The notes beneath the pieces were generated by a model that was not told the DNA's origin, did no database searches, and saw nothing but the letters and a program-made list of their open reading frames with translations. This document shows, piece after piece, positions 21,273 to 37,304 of a DNA stretch of 64,000 nt. Source of the stretch: Exophiala sp. HKRS030 (taxonomy: Eukaryota > Ascomycota > Eurotiomycetes > Chaetothyriales > Herpotrichiellaceae); contig JAHWDD010000002.1 of assembly GCA_023897205.1 (NCBI GenBank), positions 868,001 through 932,000 on the forward strand. The letters are read 5' to 3'. The position numbers and the translations under genes are program-made. The number at the start of each line of letters is the position of its first letter. The stretch's first letter is position 1.

Positions 21273-24200
21273 CTACACGATGATCAAATTCGCAATCCTA
21301 ACACCCTTTGTCTCCACATGATAGCGTCTCTTGACACCAACGGCCACCGTCTTCAAAGCCAAAGCGTCATATACGTTCTTCCCACCACCGACCATGACCA
21401 TGTGTATGGGATTATGCCGCAACAACCCAGCCGGTGTGCGTTGCGGCTGGTCGAGGTGAGGTCTGATCAAGTTCTCTTCATGGTTGAAATCGCCAGTACC
21501 ACCACCACCACCACCACCAACCACGTCGTTTTCGTCGTCAGAAATCCGATCACTACCGTATGACACGACAACGACAAGTTGGAGAGACTGCGAGGATGGG
21601 GTAAAAGTAGGAATGTTGGCGAGTTTCGTACTAAAGTTGCATCCTCCGCGTTTCACCACGAGGACCTGGTGTGTCTTGACGACGTGGGCCGGGAGTTTAT
21701 GGTCGCAGAGGTCGTCGGTCGCGTAGATCGTGGTCCACGACAGAGGAGGCGGTTGCGAACCCACGTTGGTCATGCTCATGACTTCAGGCCACTCTGGTAA
21801 CAAAGCCGCACCGGGACCGGTGGGCGTGACTGCCGCGACGTGATAGCGTGGCTTGCTGTCAGAAGAAGACGCCGCTTGTTGCTGCTGTGACGACGAAGAC
21901 GATGACAAAGTGGAGTGGACTGAAAGCGGAGTGGTAAACGGCCACGATTGCTGATGAGGGTGATCTTTGAGGAGGTTCGAGATTTGCGAGACGATGGCGT
22001 TCCAGGCTGCCCGCATCGCACTGTCAGAATCCGCAGAGCCCCCTCCCAGGTCGTCAAGACTGAGGAGCAACGCTTCGTCGGTGATATTGGACTGGACTTC
22101 GTCTTCAGGCGGCTCGATGGGACCGGAGAGGTCGATTACAATGTCCAGCATAATTGGATCTCGAATGCGTGTAAAGTTTGGGTCTGTGTTGCTCAAACTT
22201 TCCTTGCCCGAGTCTCGGGCTAGAAACACTTTCTCGTCTTTACCTAGAGGGATATTGTTGATTGTTTGAATGCGAAAGGCATCATCAAATATGCCTGTAT
22301 CTAGCAGGATGGGGACATCTTGAACCATTCCGAGACGGAGTCCGCCGAGGGAATTGATCAGGAGGCCTTCCCTGACGCGCTGGAGTGGCGGTGCCGGTTG
22401 ACCTAGATGTGTGGCTGCGGGAAATGATATATCGAGCGTGGGTTTTGTCGGGATGAGAGAACTGATGGCGTTGAAGGGGATCAACTCCATTGGCAGTGTC
22501 CACGGGTAGTATGTGTAGTTGGAGGGGGAACTGATGTCTGAGAGTGTGATGCTAGGATGATCAGCAGCGTATTCTCCAAGTACGGACTCCACGTTATCCC
22601 TTGTCGGCATCAAATGCAATCTGGCAAGGTTGGCGGCATGGTAAACGTCTCCCCTGGCAGCGATATTTGAGATACTGAAGGGCAGTGGTGGTGGACTAAC
22701 GGGACAGAAAGCCTCTTCTTGGGGAACAGGGTTCCAAAGCTTCCCTTGATGATGGCCATTGTCCACACTGCGAGGAATCAGCAATGGATGACCCTCTGTA
22801 GTGAACACGAACGGCTCATCCAGGTGGTTGAGAGGATGTGAAGGGTCGAAAAGGAGAAACAGATACTTGGCGGTTTCGCCCAAAAAGAAGCTCTCCATTC
22901 TATCCGTCTGTTCACCCGTCAAGACATTTTGAATGCTGGCCCAGCCGCATTTGGTCCAGCAACGACGCTTGATGTCCCGAAGGACCATTTCTCCGACATG
23001 GAAGTACCATGGATCTTCAGTGGCACGGTATAGGTAGTATGTTGACTCGATAAATTCTGGTCGGCCGACCCACCAGCCCAATCCGCCCTCGATACCTCCA
23101 GTAACTAAACTCCAACGCTCTGGAAGAGCAGAGAATCTGTCCCAGAGTGCAGTCTGAAGAAGATGTGTTTCGACGGCCTCTTCAACATGGCCTGCCAGTG
23201 CCAGCAAGCCAGGGTAGAACGCGCTCAGTGCGTCGACCCAAAACCCTCTAGCAGCACCCGTGATCAAGTCAGCTTGAATATAGTGGGGGTGCTGGAAGTT
23301 AGGGCCTCTATAGAGGTGCCTTCGAATTGCAGCCTGAGCAGCGTTCCAGGCTGCGAGAAAGGCTTGAGAGGTGTCCTCTTCCAGCGGTAGAGGATCAAAA
23401 AGTACACGAGGGTCTTCCGCATCCGTGGGTGTCGCATAAGCGGGGTGTGCATCTCTAGAAAGCAGCACGTGGGATTTGTAGGCATACTCAAAGAAGCTGT
23501 CGATGCCGGCACCAATGCCGGTCCAGGTACCTATCCAGTTTCCCGTTTCAGCATCAATACCGCTCCCAATCAAGTCAAGATCACTGCGTCGATTCCAAAT
23601 GGCCCAGAATGCTCGCTTAGCAAGCTCTTCAAAGCGGCTGTCTCCGGTCAGACGACTCAGCACAGTGAATTCGAGGACCAGACTTCCAGCACCAGCACTA
23701 CATGTTTCGGTGATCTCTGGAGCAGTCTGACGAGCGTCACACTGACCACGTCCTGTGTCGGCATTCAAAGGGGAATTGGTATAGAATGGAATGCCTGTGC
23801 GGAGATTGACCCGAGGATATGGTATTCCGGTCGACGACCAAAATGCAGGGATTAAACGGTTTCCCAGGTCGTACGCCAGTCTCAGAAGTTGCCCATCATA
23901 TTTGAAGCCATTCTTCCACAGTATGACATTAGTATGATTGCTTGTGAAACTCTTCCGTGATGTTTTCGCAAAGACATTCTTCTGGTTTACAGGAGAGTAT
24001 CCACGTATAGGCAAGTCTCCCGTGGCGAATAAGTGGGCACTTAGCAGGCCACCCAGCCCTCGTATCGCAGTCTCAAAGACTTGGACCTTGCTATCCAAGT
24101 CAAATCCTCGAGCTCTTAGACCTTGGCCGGACTCCTCATCTGTGCCATCGCCGTATTGCTCGACCAGACTGCGGACACCGTCCTGGAACAAGTGTAGGGC

Positions 24201-24602
24201 TTTGTTATGTTTCGGGGTGGTAGGACTAGATGCTAGGATAGCAAGTGTCGACAGGCTATCTATCAGAGTCAAGGAGTAGTTTCCTAAAGGGTCGTTGACT
24301 TCGATGTGAGCCGGATTCTCACGGTCGCGTGTCAGGGGTCTGCAGGATATAGGTCGCAGTTCGTCCTCAGGGAATGCATGGGCCATATAATTTTCGTATC
24401 CATGATAAAATAGATCTTCAACCTCCTTCTTCAACGCTTTGATCTGGCCTGGCGTCTGTGCCTCGACTCTCACGACGGATGTGAGACTGATGACGAGAAT
24501 CACCAGCGAAACAAAGTTCAGCCATTGTGTTAGGTGCCAGGTTCTCGATGCTGAGTACAACGATGCAGCTAGAGGCGTCACATTCTGCTGGCCTATGCGC
24601 AT
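21273..24602 (-). CDS. GH47 alpha-mannosidase-like protein, EDEM/Htm1 type, with protease-associated (PA) domain
   Basis: A single long exon; the first ATG, at 24602, gives 1109 residues. A hydrophobic N-terminal segment (WLNFVSLVILVISL) ending before VEAQTPGQ fits an ER signal or anchor. The GH47 (alpha/alpha)7-barrel covers about residues 45-580. Motifs are LIDSLSTLAIL, CSAGAGSLVLEFTVLSRLTG, GNWIGTWTGIGAGIDSFFEY, PEFIESTYYLYRAT, DRMESFFLGETAKYL and the calcium-binding threonine region FTTEGHPLL. A PA-like domain (CDHKLPAHVVKTHQVLVVKRG) lies near residue 970. This layout is that of EDEM proteins, which trim or recognise mannose on misfolded glycoproteins and send them to ER-associated degradation. 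LHS1, another ER quality-control gene, lies 2.2 kb away. Glycine-rich and Ser-rich spacers near the C-terminus are probably disordered. A large intron-free gene is unusual in this intron-rich window. Confidence 0.93.
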   Translation of the reverse strand: MRIGQQNVTPLAASLYSASRTWHLTQWLNFVSLVILVISLTSVVRVEAQTPGQIKALKKEVEDLFYHGYENYMAHAFPEDELRPISCRPLTRDRENPAHIEVNDPLGNYSLTLIDSLSTLAILASSPTTPKHNKALHLFQDGVRSLVEQYGDGTDEESGQGLRARGFDLDSKVQVFETAIRGLGGLLSAHLFATGDLPIRGYSPVNQKNVFAKTSRKSFTSNHTNVILWKNGFKYDGQLLRLAYDLGNRLIPAFWSSTGIPYPRVNLRTGIPFYTNSPLNADTGRGQCDARQTAPEITETCSAGAGSLVLEFTVLSRLTGDSRFEELAKRAFWAIWNRRSDLDLIGSGIDAETGNWIGTWTGIGAGIDSFFEYAYKSHVLLSRDAHPAYATPTDAEDPRVLFDPLPLEEDTSQAFLAAWNAAQAAIRRHLYRGPNFQHPHYIQADLITGAARGFWVDALSAFYPGLLALAGHVEEAVETHLLQTALWDRFSALPERWSLVTGGIEGGLGWWVGRPEFIESTYYLYRATEDPWYFHVGEMVLRDIKRRCWTKCGWASIQNVLTGEQTDRMESFFLGETAKYLFLLFDPSHPLNHLDEPFVFTTEGHPLLIPRSVDNGHHQGKLWNPVPQEEAFCPVSPPPLPFSISNIAARGDVYHAANLARLHLMPTRDNVESVLGEYAADHPSITLSDISSPSNYTYYPWTLPMELIPFNAISSLIPTKPTLDISFPAATHLGQPAPPLQRVREGLLINSLGGLRLGMVQDVPILLDTGIFDDAFRIQTINNIPLGKDEKVFLARDSGKESLSNTDPNFTRIRDPIMLDIVIDLSGPIEPPEDEVQSNITDEALLLSLDDLGGGSADSDSAMRAAWNAIVSQISNLLKDHPHQQSWPFTTPLSVHSTLSSSSSSQQQQAASSSDSKPRYHVAAVTPTGPGAALLPEWPEVMSMTNVGSQPPPLSWTTIYATDDLCDHKLPAHVVKTHQVLVVKRGGCNFSTKLANIPTFTPSSQSLQLVVVVSYGSDRISDDENDVVGGGGGGGTGDFNHEENLIRPHLDQPQRTPAGLLRHNPIHMVMVGGGKNVYDALALKTVAVGVKRRYHVETKGVRIANLIIV

Positions 24603-25164
24603 GGCACATTCAGGATCCGTAGGGCCTACTATGGCGCCCCGAACGATCACATGCGGCAGGCAAGGACTGTTGCCGATGCTGGATGGGTAATGTGGTGATG
24701 ATATCTGGCACTTTTGTTTTGCCGCGAGACATGATGCGCCGCTTTAGTCGTAGAGTCCGATAATGGAGCGCGGCGATTGGCTCCAGCTCCGGAATCTCTG
24801 AGCGGCAGGCATTATCTGCTTAGTCAGCTGTCGATGCCTTTTGCCTCGGTGGCCACGGCGATTTTTGGGTTTGGCTTTCCCCGAAGGAGGATTCGGAGGT
24901 TAATGAGGTTCAAGGACTTTAGATAAAAAAGCTTTGTATATCCGTTTACATTACAAACCTCATAGGAGATAGGGAAAAATTCGGTGCCTTTTCAGGTAAG
25001 CATTAACGAGGTAGATTCACAACAATATAGTAGGTCAACTAGGTGGATTTTCTTTAAATATCCCATTCATCCTTCAAGCACCATCCCAGGGTGGCTTCAT
25101 TGCTCTCACTCACAGTTGTCAACCGAAATCTACATCCTGATATACTCTCTGGAATAAGGCAAAC
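24603..25164. other. Divergent promoter region, GH47 and SDR genes
   Basis: 562 bp between two divergent starts with no gene. AT-rich blocks near 24920-25060 (for example TTTAAATAT at about 25053) may serve as promoter elements for the reductase. Confidence 0.45.
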
Positions 25165-31414: not shown

Positions 31415-33721
31415 ATGACCTCTCGCTTGAAGAGTTTAGGCTTCGGTTCCAAACGAAAGAGCAGTGCCAACATCCAAACCAACTCCGTCGCCTCGCCAAA
31501 CGGCTCCATCTCCACCACCGCCACCACTCCTCCCCCTCCCAATTCCTCCCAGACCAGCCTGCCGCCCATGAACCAGCAAGGCGCACCAGGTCGTCCTCCG
31601 AGTTACTCATACCAGACCGTCCAAGGGCGCCCGCAGTCTCCTCTGCCGCCTCCGCAGAACCAGATGGCGCACCCTCCTCCCATCGATACGAGACAAAATT
31701 ACATGGGAGGAAACCCCCAGCTAGGCCCTCCTCAACCCCCCGGATATGGAGGTGCATATGCTCCCATCGGACCTCAGCCTGGCATCCAGCACACTGCCAA
31801 CCAGTATGCTCCTGGCCGTGCTGCCGAGGTCGAGGCTTCGAACCGCAACAAGGCTCAGCTCATTGTGGGAATCGATTTTGTAAGCTGGCTCTCTCAGACA
31901 TGTTATGCGCCAGATACTGATTGTCATTGCAGGGGACAACCTTTTCAGGTGTGGCATACGCTTTCGCGACGAACACAGAAGCAAAGGAGGATATAATTTC
32001 AGAATGGCCGGGCGCAGGCAACCAGACAAAGCAAAAGGTTGGTCGGAACATATTCCAGGCTATATCAAAGCATATGCTGACAGTCGCATCAGATCCCTAC
32101 AGTCCTATACTACGATCAGTATCAAAAAGTTGTTGGCTGGGGTCCAGATATCGCTGAAGCACTTGCTCCCACTGGGTACCCCAAGCCCGGCGTCCAAAAG
32201 GTGGAATGGTTCAAGCTGCAACTAATGCTCTCCGGGAACACATATATAGATCCTATTAACCTACCACCGTTGCCCCCTGGAAAGTCCGAAATCGACGTCG
32301 CTGCTGACTACCTCTTTAAACTCCGCAATGCTATGCGAGTGTACTTGGGGAAGACTCTGGGCGAGGTGTTCAACCGTGAGGAACGAAACATCCGATACTT
32401 CTTGACTGTCCCAGCCATTTGGAACGATGCAGGCAAAGCGGCGACCAGGGCAGCCGCCATTCAAGCAGGTTTTATCCGTGATGAGAATGATAACAGACTG
32501 ACTCTAATCACCGAACCCGAAGCAGCTGCCATGTTCTGCTCTAAAACCGGTCTCCTCAACCTCAAGATCCACGATGCTGTCTTGATTGTCGACTGTGGTG
32601 GTGGTACTGTTGATCTGATCGCCTACGAAGTCGAAGAAGAAACCCCATTCTCAGTCGCCGAATGTACTGCTGGTAGCGGTGATTCTTGTGGATCTACAGC
32701 TCTTAATCGCAACTTTTCCAACATCCTGCGAGCCAAGATCCGAAGAATGAAACTTCCTGATGGGTCAAAGACCGCCGGCAGAGTCTACGCCAAATGCATT
32801 ATGGATTTCGAAAATCGAATCAAGGCTGATTTCCGTAACAACGGCCAGAAATGGGCGGTCGATGTCGGTATCGAGGCTGAATTCCCCGAGGCGGGCATCG
32901 AAGAAGGTTACATGACATTCACTAATGAGGAAATCCTTCAATGCTTCGAACCAGTGGTAAACCGAATCCTTGAGCTGGTCCGTAACCAGATCATTGCCAT
33001 TCAAGCACAAAACAGATCCTTGCAGAATGTTTTGGTCGTCGGTGGGTTCGGTGCGTCCGAATACCTTTTCCAGCAAATCAAGCTTCACGTACCGCCACAG
33101 TTCCAGTCAAAAGTTGTCCGCCCCATGGACTCGGTCGCCGCCATCGTCAAAGGTGCAGTTACGGCAGGTATTACCGAGCGAGTGGTTACATCTCGTGTAG
33201 CCCGTCGACATTACCTGATGGCCACCCTACAGCCTTTCAAGGAGGGTTATCATCCAGAGCAATACCGTGTTCCCAGTCTTGACGGCAAGGATCGATGCAA
33301 ATATACAAGACAGATTTTCGTTCAAAAGGGCGAAAGGGTCAAGATTGGCGAACCGGTCAAGGTATCATTCTTCAGACAGGTTGCACCAGGTGCCACGTTG
33401 ATGTACGAAGACATTCTATACGCATGCGACGAAGACGTTTGGTAAGTGGTGACTTATCTAGTTGTTGAACAAGAATCCGTACTGACCAGTATCTTCAGTC
33501 CTGAATACACAAAAGACCCCCGTATCAAGGAGGTTGTTACACTCACCTCGGATTTGTCCAGAAAGAACCTTGAAAAGGACTTTGAACGCATGGACACACC
33601 TCAAGGAACATTTTACCGAGTCTATTTCGATATCTATCTCACACTAGATGGATCAGAATTCAATGCCGAACTGGTCTGTCAAGGAGAAGTCATGGGACGT
33701 TGTACGGCTCGATTCAGATGA
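31415..33721 (+). CDS. HSPA12-type Hsp70-like ATPase (cytosolic)
   Basis: Four exons, 31415-31879, 31933-32037, 32093-33441 and 33499-33721, give 713 residues. A Pro/Ser/Gln-rich disordered leader of about 145 residues precedes the actin-like ATPase fold. Phosphate and adenosine motifs are visible: GIDFGTTFSGVAYAF (split by the first intron), VLIVDCGGGTVDLIAYEV and VLVVGGFGASEYLF. A canonical Hsp70 substrate-binding domain and EEVD end are absent, as usual for HSPA12-like proteins, which are numerous in filamentous fungi and poorly understood. Each intron is short with a clear branch site. It lies downstream of LHS1 in the same direction but belongs to a distant branch, so tandem duplication is not implied. 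Confidence 0.95.
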
Positions 33722-36110: not shown

Positions 36111-36356
36111 GTTTCCTTCACATGCGAAAGAAATACATTTCGAGCAGACAGGCTATGCCATCACAATAGCAACTAGCTCAAATTAATAATCACGCGAAAA
36201 GTGTTGGTGGGATGTTTTGTTATGAGGTTGCTTGAGGGAAGATGTAGAATCACTCCAGGCATCCCCTCTCTAGATTGGAACTAGGGTGATGCCGCTCTAT
36301 GCCCACCCTTGAGAGGCATTCACCTTGAGGTGCAAAGAGGACCGTAGGACCGTAGG

Positions 36357-36705
36357 ACAACTTGAGATCCTGCAACAACAACCCATTTATCTCATGATAT
36401 CTCTATATAAGTCTACTCGGAATTCGATTCTCTATCTATCCATTTCAGCATTACTAGTTACAGAGGTGCACTATATAGAGATATCATGGAATGAAACGCT
36501 TGTTGTTGTTGCAGGATTTCAAGTTGTCACATTTGGTCAGTTCAGATTTGATCGATTATTGATATTCTCTTGTTGCACATCGACTATACCTCTATCACTA
36601 GTGATGCCAATATAGATGAATAGAGAATCGAATTCTGAGTAGACTTATATAGAGATATCATGAGATAAAAGGGTTGTCGTTACATGATCCCATGTTGTCA
36701 CATTT
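36357..36705. mobile_element. Fold-back (MITE-like) element with long imperfect inverted repeats
   Basis: Two arms, about 36357-36470 and 36588-36705, are imperfect reverse complements. The core 49-mers (36387-36435 and 36620-36668) differ at one position. Inner segments (36448-36470 and 36587-36607, both with a CACTAGT/ACTAGT core) are also inverted. A degraded third copy in the orientation of the right arm lies between them at 36470-36545 (TATATAGAGATATCATG...GTTGTCACATTTGGTC). No coding capacity is present, so it would be non-autonomous. Target-site duplications are not clear. A simple palindromic duplication is the alternative. Confidence 0.75.
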
Positions 36706-36938: not shown

Positions 36939-37068
36939 CTCCCTGACAGGGAATCGAACCCTGGTCTCCCTATGACATTATTAGTCTCATGTCGCTTGCG
37001 ATTTGATTCATGAGAACATACCGCGCTTGTAATGCAACCAGATGGCTGTCATGTATGACAAGCGGAAA
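36939..37068 (-). pseudogene. 5'-truncated tRNA-Asp copy with an extra mRNA-type intron-like insertion
   Basis: Reading the minus strand, homology to the complete tRNA-Asp starts at TTTCCGC (37068), just before the anticodon arm. The acceptor 5' strand and D arm are missing, replaced by sequence related to the 3' flank of the neighbouring unit. The canonical anticodon-loop intron is kept (37026-37055, 30 nt). A 52-nt insertion (36970-37021) splits the 3' strand of the anticodon stem between GCG and GG. It starts GTATGT, has GACTAAT near its end and finishes CATAG. The neighbouring copy lacks it at this position. The T arm (B box GGTTCGATTCC) and the 3' acceptor strand (TCAGGGA) remain. Without an A box and 5' acceptor strand it should be non-functional. 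Confidence 0.85.
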
Positions 37069-37084
37069 CTGATTGATAGATGAG

Positions 37085-37118
37085 CATTAGTCGAGAGGAT
37101 CGGAACTACAACCCAAAA
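37085..37118. repeat. Direct repeat flanking the tRNA-Asp copies, right member
   Basis: Second copy of the repeat at 36861-36896. It lies between the intact and the truncated tRNA-Asp units. Confidence 0.85.
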
Positions 37119-37138: not shown

Positions 37139-37146
37139 AAAAAAAA
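37139..37146 (-). terminator. Pol III oligo-T terminator of tRNA-Asp
   Basis: Eight A residues on the plus strand (T8 on the transcribed sense) start 8 nt after the mature 3' end of the tRNA, a standard Pol III termination signal. Confidence 0.85.
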
Positions 37147-37153
37147 CAGAAGT

Positions 37154-37304
37154 CTCCCCGACAGGGAATCGAACCCTGGTCTCCCGCGCTTGTAACGCAA
37201 CCAGATGGTTGTCTTGTATGACAAGCGGAAATCATGACCTGTACATTGTTAGAGAGAATGTCATATCTGAAGAGCGGTAGTACATACCACTAGACCATCG
37301 AGGA
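37154..37304 (-). tRNA. tRNA-Asp(GTC) with canonical anticodon intron plus a 49-nt D-loop insertion resembling a spliceosomal intron
   Basis: On the minus strand, TCCTCGA (37304-37298) pairs with TCGGGGA at the 3' end. The A box TGGTCTAGTGG, the anticodon stem TCCGC/GCGGG with GTC in the loop, the B box GGTTCGATTCC and discriminator G are all present. Two interruptions must be removed to obtain a regular 72-nt cloverleaf. The 30-nt segment 37189-37218 sits at the canonical 37/38 position, and its GACAA can pair with TTGTC around the anticodon, as in normal nuclear tRNA introns. The 49-nt segment 37239-37287 lies in the D loop after AGTG. It begins GTATGT, contains CTCTAAC ten nucleotides from its end and finishes ACAG. 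The A box is kept across the 5' junction. Whether the D-loop segment is spliced, and by what, is unknown; if it is not removed the gene is dead. Confidence 0.85.

What the first reader, a model, noticed from the sequence alone, without database searches (positions are those of the whole stretch)
37239..37287. mRNA-type intron inside the D loop of a tRNA-Asp gene
Seen: the tRNA-Asp(GTC) gene gives a normal 72-nt cloverleaf only if this 49-nt segment and the usual 37/38 intron are removed. The segment has a 5' GTATGT, a CTCTAAC branch-like site with its A about 10 nt from the end, and a 3' ACAG, exactly the signals of the spliceosomal introns of nearby protein genes. Known: eukaryotic nuclear tRNA introns are cut by the tRNA endonuclease at 37/38; ectopic ones are known mainly from archaea and some red algae; mRNA-type introns in another Pol III gene (U6 snRNA) are known in some fungi. 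Inference: this may be a spliceosome-removed intron in a Pol III tRNA precursor, or a fatal insertion. Its ends also contain TGTAC/GTACA, which could pair and offer an endonuclease-type alternative.
Basis: partly seen in the sequence, partly recalled or inferred. Interest (0 to 1): 0.88.

Follow-up and report, generated by a model that had tools for sequence, protein, structure and literature searches.

The report
tRNA genes interrupted by mRNA-style introns
In this black-yeast fungus, all four tRNA-Asp genes found, and many other tRNA genes, are interrupted away from the usual spot by short segments with the signals of messenger-RNA introns, so making these tRNAs would likely depend on the spliceosome rather than on the tRNA-splicing enzyme alone.

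Summary
On the minus strand, 37304-37154 is a tRNA-Asp(GTC) gene with a 49-nt GTATGT..CTCTAAC..ACAG segment (37287-37239) in the D loop and a 30-nt intron at 37/38. It is not isolated. Four tRNA-Asp genes were found in the 59.8-Mb genome; all are interrupted, at several sites. Removing the GT-AG segment at two different sites gives the same 72-nt tRNA in three genes, letter for letter. I found 24 such inserts in 19 of 69 tRNA genes read, one in a truncated tRNA-Asp copy beside the window gene, and one in a U6 gene. Each of these 26 has exactly one GT-AG placement that restores the RNA; 22 have a CTRAY branch motif near the 3' end. Signals match introns of protein genes in the window; bulge-helix-bulge motifs are absent. 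Uninterrupted paralogues show the empty site for Pro, Leu-TAA, His, Ser-GCT and U6. Best explanation: spliceosomal introns in Pol III tRNA transcripts, predicted to be removed by the spliceosome beside ordinary 37/38 introns. Removal is untested (no RNA data), and the gene inventory is incomplete.

The parts
37288..37304 (-). tRNA-Asp(GTC) exon 1: acceptor 5' strand, D-stem, up to G18
   Evidence: same letters at L002 and L003
37239..37287 (-). 49-nt mRNA-type intron in the D loop (18/19): GTATGT ... CTCTAAC ... ACAG
37248..37254 (-). branch-site-like CTCTAAC, A at 37249, 10 nt before the intron's last base
37219..37238 (-). tRNA-Asp exon 2: rest of the D arm to A37, with anticodon GTC
37189..37218 (-). 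canonical 30-nt tRNA intron at 37/38
   Evidence: ARAGORN i(39,30)
37154..37188 (-). tRNA-Asp exon 3: 3' anticodon stem, variable loop, T arm with intact B box, acceptor 3' strand, G73
37139..37146 (-). run of 8 T, Pol III terminator-like
37069..37090 (-). copy 2 (truncated tRNA-Asp): CTAATGCTCATCTATCAATCAG before TTTCCGC, reading like the 3' end of an intron at the other Asp site; the 5' half of this copy was not found
   Evidence: read directly; 3' duplication; the intron reading is inferred
36939..37068 (-). copy 2: 3' part of a second tRNA-Asp with its own 37/38 intron (37055-37026)
36970..37021 (-). copy 2: 52-nt GTATGT ... GACTAAT ... CATAG insert between GCGCG and GGAGACC (3' anticodon stem)

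Best explanation
The 49-nt segment carries the donor, branch and acceptor signals of a short fungal spliceosomal intron and interrupts one of four tRNA-Asp genes found, all of them interrupted in this way, so it is predicted to be cut out of the Pol III precursor by the spliceosome. Proposed order (inferred): Pol III transcribes the gene from its A and B boxes to the T run; the spliceosome removes the GT-AG intron by two transesterifications through a branched A; once the tRNA body can fold, the tRNA endonuclease and ligase remove the ordinary 37/38 intron. Shown here: the inserts, their signals, identical mature sequences from different insertion sites, empty sites in uninterrupted paralogues, and the same kind of insert in 19 tRNA genes and a U6 gene. 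Inferred: removal by the spliceosome, the order of steps, and origin by reverse splicing of mRNA introns into Pol III RNAs.
For: Four of four tRNA-Asp genes found carry GT-AG inserts: window, L002, L003 and L012, the last with two. The mature 72-mer is identical in three of them although the window insert lies 7 nt from the L002/L003 site. A search with the uninterrupted 72-mer returned only pieces of those three genes (6 matches). Of 78 sites within 3 mismatches of the 5' half, ARAGORN was run on 51 (50, L083) and flagged only those three and a tRNA-Pro gene. Altogether there are 24 inserts in 19 tRNA genes, one in the truncated copy and one in U6; each has exactly one GT-AG placement among 1-6 equivalent ones. 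CTRAY lies 7-35 nt from the 3' end in 22 of 26, against a shuffle mean of 4.6 and maximum of 12 in 2000. Uninterrupted paralogues show the empty site for Pro-CGG, Leu-TAA, His-GTG, Ser-GCT and U6. After removal ARAGORN names the right isotype and anticodon for 17 of 19, before removal for 1 of 19. L002 against L003: exons 98-100% identical, intron 58% (shuffled 95th percentile 57), upstream flank 51%, downstream 59%. Protein-gene introns of the window have the same donor, branch and acceptor types; three are 53-57 nt, one 79.
Against: No RNA evidence was available, so splicing, lariats and mature ends are untested. The inventory is incomplete: the tRNA family search scored 63 of 1707 candidates, several expected isoacceptors (elongator Met, Trp, Phe) were not recovered, 27 of the 78 5'-half sites were not read, and ARAGORN missed L012, which I recognised by eye, so a diverged tRNA-Asp gene cannot be fully excluded. 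I set most boundaries by choosing the GT-AG placement; only for the three identical Asp genes and the five paralogue pairs are they fixed independently. Four of 26 inserts lack a strict CTRAY motif (L088, L109, second of L113, second of L103). L012 and L103 have the B box interrupted in the DNA, which should weaken their promoters; the B-box count is biased, since most genes were found by their B box. The exon/intron contrast is weaker for Arg-TCT (exons 80-86%, intron 62%) and Lys (exon 85%, intron 63%). Only five protein-gene introns served as yardstick. No relatives' genomes were available.
Confidence: 0.87

Rival explanations
1. The inserts are ectopic tRNA introns cut by the tRNA splicing endonuclease, as in archaea, the red alga Cyanidioschyzon and nucleomorphs.
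For: Such introns in D and T arms are known (PMC4090602, section 5 read). The ends of the window insert can form a 5-6 bp helix, more than its shuffles.
Against: 0 of 26 inserts have a 4-bp bulge-helix-bulge central helix, and none reaches 3 of 4 pairs in all three helices (there the truncated copy's insert was read one base off). Over all inserts end pairing is at shuffle level and folding is no stronger than shuffles (mean z +0.48). The GT-AG ends and CTRAY motif would be unexplained.
Confidence: 0.05
2. The interrupted genes are pseudogenes; functional tRNAs come from uninterrupted copies.
For: The second copy in the window is truncated. A review treats D- or T-arm insertions in single gene copies as supposed pseudogenes (PMC4090602, section 5). 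Uninterrupted paralogues exist for Pro-CGG, Leu-TAA, His, Ser-GCT and, read by eye, Ile-AAT and Gly-TCC.
Against: No uninterrupted gene was found among the 69 read for Asp (0 of 4), Arg-TCT (0 of 2), Lys (0 of 2), Leu-CAA (0 of 2), Ala-AGC (0 of 2) or Ser-AGA (0 of 1); for Asp alone this was also searched directly. Mature Asp sequences are preserved while introns and flanks have diverged. A run of 4 or more T lies within 30 nt downstream in 16 of 19.
Confidence: 0.05
3. The inserts are copies of a recently mobile intron-like element rather than old independent introns.
For: Many genes are affected at many sites; donor GTAAGC recurs in 9 of 26.
Against: Two inserts at the same site (L002, L003) are only 58% identical, near shuffle level, so insertion is not recent there; the inserts read show no common body by eye (no all-against-all test was run).
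Confidence: 0.03

Closest known systems
mRNA-type introns in U6 snRNA genes (fission yeast and other fungi) and in fungal U3 snoRNA genes
   Same: Spliceosomal introns in small structured RNA genes of fungi; for fission-yeast U6 thought to arise by reverse splicing (PMC10484740, passages; PMC5832005, passages). This genome has one too, in U6 gene L146.
   Different: Here the hosts are tRNA genes, many isotypes and many positions. PMC5832005 (2017) states that U3 and U6 were the only small structured RNAs known to be often interrupted by an intron.
Spliceosomal introns in rDNA of lichen-forming and other ascomycetes
   Same: Short spliceosomal introns in a transcript not made by Pol II; yeast removed such introns from Pol I rRNA (PMC8527467, abstract and passages).
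   Different: Pol I rRNA, not Pol III tRNA. Whether this genome has rDNA introns is untested (five SSU requests unanswered).
Canonical eukaryotic tRNA introns at 37/38
   Same: The window gene and many others also carry one.
   Different: The inserts discussed lie in the D, T, variable or anticodon-stem regions and carry GT-AG and branch signals.
Ectopic tRNA introns of archaea, Cyanidioschyzon merolae and nucleomorphs
   Same: Introns outside 37/38, up to three per gene (PMC4090602 section 5; PMC8450103 passages).
   Different: Those of archaea and Cyanidioschyzon are endonuclease introns with BHB motifs, those of the Guillardia nucleomorph 3-24 nt; here no BHB, 47-65 nt, spliceosomal signals.

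Membership tests
U2-type spliceosomal intron | 5' GT and 3' AG at exact exon junctions | tested here: met
   26 of 26 inserts have exactly one GT-AG placement that gives the same product; boundaries fixed independently for 3 Asp genes and 5 paralogue pairs
U2-type spliceosomal intron | branch-site motif near the 3' end | tested here: met
   CTRAY 7-35 nt from the end in 22 of 26, shuffles mean 4.6, max 12 of 26; present in the window insert
U2-type spliceosomal intron | signals and size like mRNA introns of the same genome | tested here: met
   four homology-placed introns and one donor in two window genes; small sample
U2-type spliceosomal intron | lariat and exact joined exons in RNA | not testable with these tools
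   no RNA data held
Endonuclease (BHB) tRNA intron | bulge-helix-bulge with 4-bp central helix at the exon-intron borders | tested here: not met
   0 of 26
Canonical eukaryotic tRNA intron | position 37/38 | tested here: not met
   the 25 tRNA inserts lie elsewhere; the genes often have a separate 37/38 intron
tRNA pseudogene | decayed tRNA sequence, dispensable because intact copies exist | tested here: not met
   window gene: mature 72 nt identical to L002 and L003, no uninterrupted Asp gene found (not exhaustive); copy 2 at 36939-37090 does look decayed (5' half missing)
mRNA-type intron in Pol III genes (U6 type) | spliceosomal-type intron inside a Pol III-transcribed structured RNA gene | tested here: met
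   tRNA genes with B box in 17 of 19 and T runs of 4 or more in 16 of 19; U6 L146 against uninterrupted L145. Transcription itself not tested

The most novel reading that the evidence does not exclude
In this black-yeast lineage the spliceosome has become an obligatory tRNA-maturation machine: every aspartate codon is read by a tRNA whose precursor must first be spliced like an mRNA, some tRNAs go through up to three spliceosomal steps plus one endonuclease step, and mRNA introns keep invading Pol III genes by reverse splicing, tying translation directly to spliceosome capacity.
Probability: 0.72. Interest if true: 0.94.

Novelty: new variant of a known kind. Interest (0 to 1): 0.92.

Why it matters
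Textbook tRNA splicing is spliceosome-free and, in eukaryotic nuclei, mostly at one site. A fungus in which all tRNA-Asp genes found, and about a quarter of the tRNA genes read here (19 of 69), need mRNA-type splicing would overturn that division of labour. It would show spliceosomes acting on many Pol III transcripts, and give a natural record of intron gain in RNAs whose exact mature sequence is known. It also warns that tRNA finders can mis-name such genes: ARAGORN named 1 of 19 correctly before the inserts were removed. Reported tRNA counts in relatives vary widely (38 to 79 in the papers seen; 42-45 in Exophiala spinifera); whether missed interrupted genes explain the low ones is a guess. 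It makes the reverse-splicing idea of intron gain testable in Pol III RNAs other than U6.

Tried and rejected
Endonuclease (BHB) reading of the insert ends: tested on all 26, rejected. Special meaning of the TGTAC/GTACA ends: 6 bp in the window insert against 3.79 for its own shuffles, but 3.92 against 3.75 bp on average over all inserts, so taken as chance. Group I or II introns: rejected on size (47-65 nt), recalled knowledge. Pseudogene reading: kept only for copy 2. ARAGORN on the window without introns allowed and Rfam at gathering threshold find nothing. Not every interrupted gene is hidden, though: L042 and L076 and L086 (36.9 bits) pass Rfam's tRNA cut-off unspliced, while L002, L012 and L103 gave no match at E up to 1. 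The SSU rRNA search for rDNA introns did not complete. L128, first taken as a tRNA candidate, could not be read into a convincing gene and was left out of all counts; so were the four tRNA-like units in L126, L080 and L081 (below the Rfam cut-off), L110, and L083 and L084 (chance 5'-half matches). No multi-species comparison was possible: I found no other fungal genome in the collections on offer.

Counting: 69 tRNA genes read = 42 over the cut-off, plus 10 uninterrupted (L082, L096, L104, L107, L114, L118, L124, L127, L130, L133) and 17 interrupted ones. Two of the 42 (Arg-TCT) are interrupted, so 19 of 69. The B-box searches gave 184 sites (55, 32, 53, 44); 60 stretches around them were fetched, and most of the A- and T-class and 8 of the C-class sites were not read. 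ARAGORN's anticodons for L041, L046, L057, L061-L063, L065, L067, L068, L074, L076 and L079 were re-read by eye.

Full report
OBSERVATION. On the minus strand the window holds a tRNA-Asp(GTC) gene from 37304 to 37154. It reads exon 1 (37304-37288), a 49-nt segment (37287-37239), exon 2 (37238-37219), a 30-nt intron at 37/38 (37218-37189) and exon 3 (37188-37154), followed by 8 T (37146-37139). The 49-mer starts GTATGT, has CTCTAAC with its A 10 nt before the last base, and ends ACAG. ARAGORN with introns allowed mis-names the unspliced gene and calls Asp(gtc) once the 49-mer is removed.

SECOND COPY IN THE WINDOW. A partial tandem duplicate lies at 37090-36939. Its 5' half is missing; what precedes TTTCCGC looks like the 3' end of an intron at a second Asp site. 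It has its own 37/38 intron and a 52-nt GTATGT..GACTAAT..CATAG insert (37021-36970) in the 3' anticodon stem. This copy is most likely a relic.

ALL tRNA-Asp GENES FOUND ARE INTERRUPTED. The genome (59.8 Mb, 50 contigs) was searched with the window gene, with the 5' half allowing 3 mismatches (78 sites), with the Rfam tRNA family and with the uninterrupted 72-mer. Four full tRNA-Asp genes were found: the window gene, L002, L003 and L012. L002 and L003 carry GT-AG inserts of 56 and 57 nt between CATGA and TTTCC. L012 carries one in the D loop and one in the T loop. None is uninterrupted. ARAGORN was run on 51 of the 78 sites (50, L083); it flagged only the window gene, L002, L003 and a tRNA-Pro, and it missed L012, which I recognised by eye. 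So the screen would show a plain gene but could miss a doubly interrupted one, and 27 sites were not read. Removing the inserts gives the same 72 letters for the window gene, L002 and L003, although the window insert is at a different site. This fixes those boundaries without appeal to splice signals.

GENOME-WIDE. B-box patterns and the family search led to 69 tRNA genes that I could read: 50 uninterrupted except at 37/38, and 19 with at least one insert elsewhere. The 19 carry 24 inserts: Asp x4 genes, Arg-TCT x2, Lys-CTT x2, Leu-CAA x2, Leu-TAA, Ala-AGC x2, Pro-CGG, His-GTG, Ser-AGA, Ser-GCT, Gly-TCC, Ile-AAT. Ile-AAT (L103) has three inserts plus a 37/38 intron; Ser-AGA (L135) has two plus a 37/38 intron; Lys (L113) has two separated by only 2 nt. 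A U6 gene (L146, 66 bits) has the same kind of insert at AGAGAAG/ATTAGC, absent from the U6 gene L145 (87.6 bits). For Asp, Arg-TCT, Lys, Leu-CAA, Ala-AGC and Ser-AGA no uninterrupted gene was among the 69. The inventory is a lower bound: the family search scored 63 of 1707 candidates, many B-box sites were not read, and elongator Met, Trp and Phe were not recovered.

SIGNALS. With copy 2 and U6 there are 26 inserts, 47-65 nt. Each has 1-6 placements that give the same product and exactly one of them is GT-AG. Donors: GTAAGC in 9, then GTATGT, GTTCGT (3 each), GTTAGT, GTGAGT (2 each) and single ones; acceptors CAG in 17, TAG in 7, AAG in 1 (where copy 2 was read one base off; one search corrects it to GTATGT and TAG). 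CTRAY lies 7-35 nt from the end in 22 of 26, against a shuffled mean of 4.6 and a maximum of 12 in 2000 (letters between donor and acceptor shuffled). The four without it are L088, L109, the second insert of L113 and the second of L103. Protein-gene yardstick: three introns of an HSP70-like gene and one of an MFS gene have both ends fixed by homology (53, 55, 57 and 79 nt; donors GTAAGC, GTTGGT, GTAAGT, GTAAGT; CTGAT, CTGAC, CTGAC, CTAAT; CAG); for a second MFS intron only the donor GTGAGC is fixed, since relatives' protein models differ there (the intron at 33442 read by eye). This is a small yardstick.

EMPTY SITES AND SELECTION. Alignments of Pro-CGG, Leu-TAA, His-GTG, Ser-GCT and U6 against uninterrupted paralogues show the insert as one clean block. 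Between L002 and L003 the exons are 98-100% identical, the intron 58% (shuffled 95th percentile 57), the upstream flank 51% and the downstream 59%. So the tRNA is preserved while intron and flanks drift. The contrast is weaker for the Arg-TCT pair (exons 80-86%, intron 62%) and the Lys pair (3' exon 85%, intron 63%; the 5' exon comparison is distorted by the extra insert of L113). After removal ARAGORN names 17 of 19 genes correctly (L002 and L076 fail), before removal 1 of 19.

ALTERNATIVES. No insert has a 4-bp BHB central helix (0 of 26), and none has 3 of 4 pairs in all three helices. The inserts are no more structured than shuffles (mean z +0.48), and helices between insert ends average 3.92 bp against 3.75 shuffled. 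The window insert itself has 6 bp against 3.79, as have two others (L095 and the first of L113); I take the TGTAC/GTACA pairing as chance. A pseudogene reading cannot hold for all Asp genes at once, unless an uninterrupted one escaped the searches.

ORGANISM. A window protein (21273-24740, minus) is 99% identical to one filed as Knufia peltigerae, 89% to Rhinocladiella similis and 88% to Exophiala spinifera: a Chaetothyriales black yeast. No other fungal genome could be searched, so the age and spread of these introns are untested.

LITERATURE. PMC5832005 (2017, passages) says U3 and U6 were the only small structured RNAs known to be often interrupted by an intron. PMC4090602 (2014, passages, section 5) treats D- and T-arm insertions in nuclear tRNA genes as mostly supposed pseudogenes, with nucleomorph and red-algal exceptions. 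PMC8450103 (2021, passages) says eukaryotic tRNA genes are limited to one intron. PMC13149111 (2026, passages) describes tRNA splicing as not using the spliceosome. PMC8527467 (2021, abstract and passages) reports yeast removing lichen spliceosomal introns from Pol I rRNA. PMC10484740 (passages) describes the fission-yeast U6 intron. Ten paper searches listed no title or abstract opening that reports spliceosomal introns in nuclear tRNA genes; lists were capped, and subscription papers and preprints are not held, so this is not proof of absence. The Canzler 2016 U6 paper and the 2003 rRNA intron paper (recalled) were not held.

MECHANISM. Shown: inserts, signals, identical products, empty sites, genome-wide recurrence. 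Inferred: Pol III transcription (B box in 17 of 19 unspliced genes, a count biased by B-box searching; T run of 4 or more within 30 nt in 16 of 19), removal by the spliceosome, then the endonuclease step at 37/38. Twelve of 26 inserts follow AG or GG (corrected for copy 2), and several lie just after the A-box core, as reverse splicing into proto-splice sites might give; this origin is a hypothesis.

Noticed in passing
G000 C6:3268860-3270960 (L126): Four tandem tRNA-like units of 188-308 nt with A- and B-box-like sequences, 7 of 7 acceptor pairs and TTTT within 40 nt downstream; ARAGORN gives odd anticodons (tta, ttc, ttc) with 112-137 nt introns for three, by eye some read TCA or TTA, and Rfam gives no convincing match.
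   Followed up: partly
G000 C10:880100-880650 (L113), tRNA-Lys: Two GT-AG inserts separated by a 2-nt exon (CG), so splicing would probably have to be sequential.
   Followed up: partly
G000 C5:53539-54089 (L103), downstream of tRNA-Ile: The B box of this gene is interrupted by an insert in the T loop; a separate T-arm-like hairpin with a GGTTCAATTCC box lies about 30 nt after the gene, before a run of 9 T. It might serve as a replacement promoter element.
   Followed up: no
G000 C5:2143871-2144024 (L146): One of two U6 genes has a 53-nt mRNA-type insert with donor GTTCGT; the same donor occurs in tRNA-Asp L012 and tRNA-Leu L109. A GGTTCGAGTCG box lies downstream.
   Followed up: partly
window 36356-36699: Inverted repeat with 112-nt arms, 86% complementary, 120 nt apart, just downstream of the tRNA copies, with direct repeats in and beside the arms.
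   Followed up: no
G000 whole genome: The assembly is 59.8 Mb, against 32-38 Mb for Exophiala spinifera and E. oligosperma assemblies (PMC7412599, passage).
   Followed up: no
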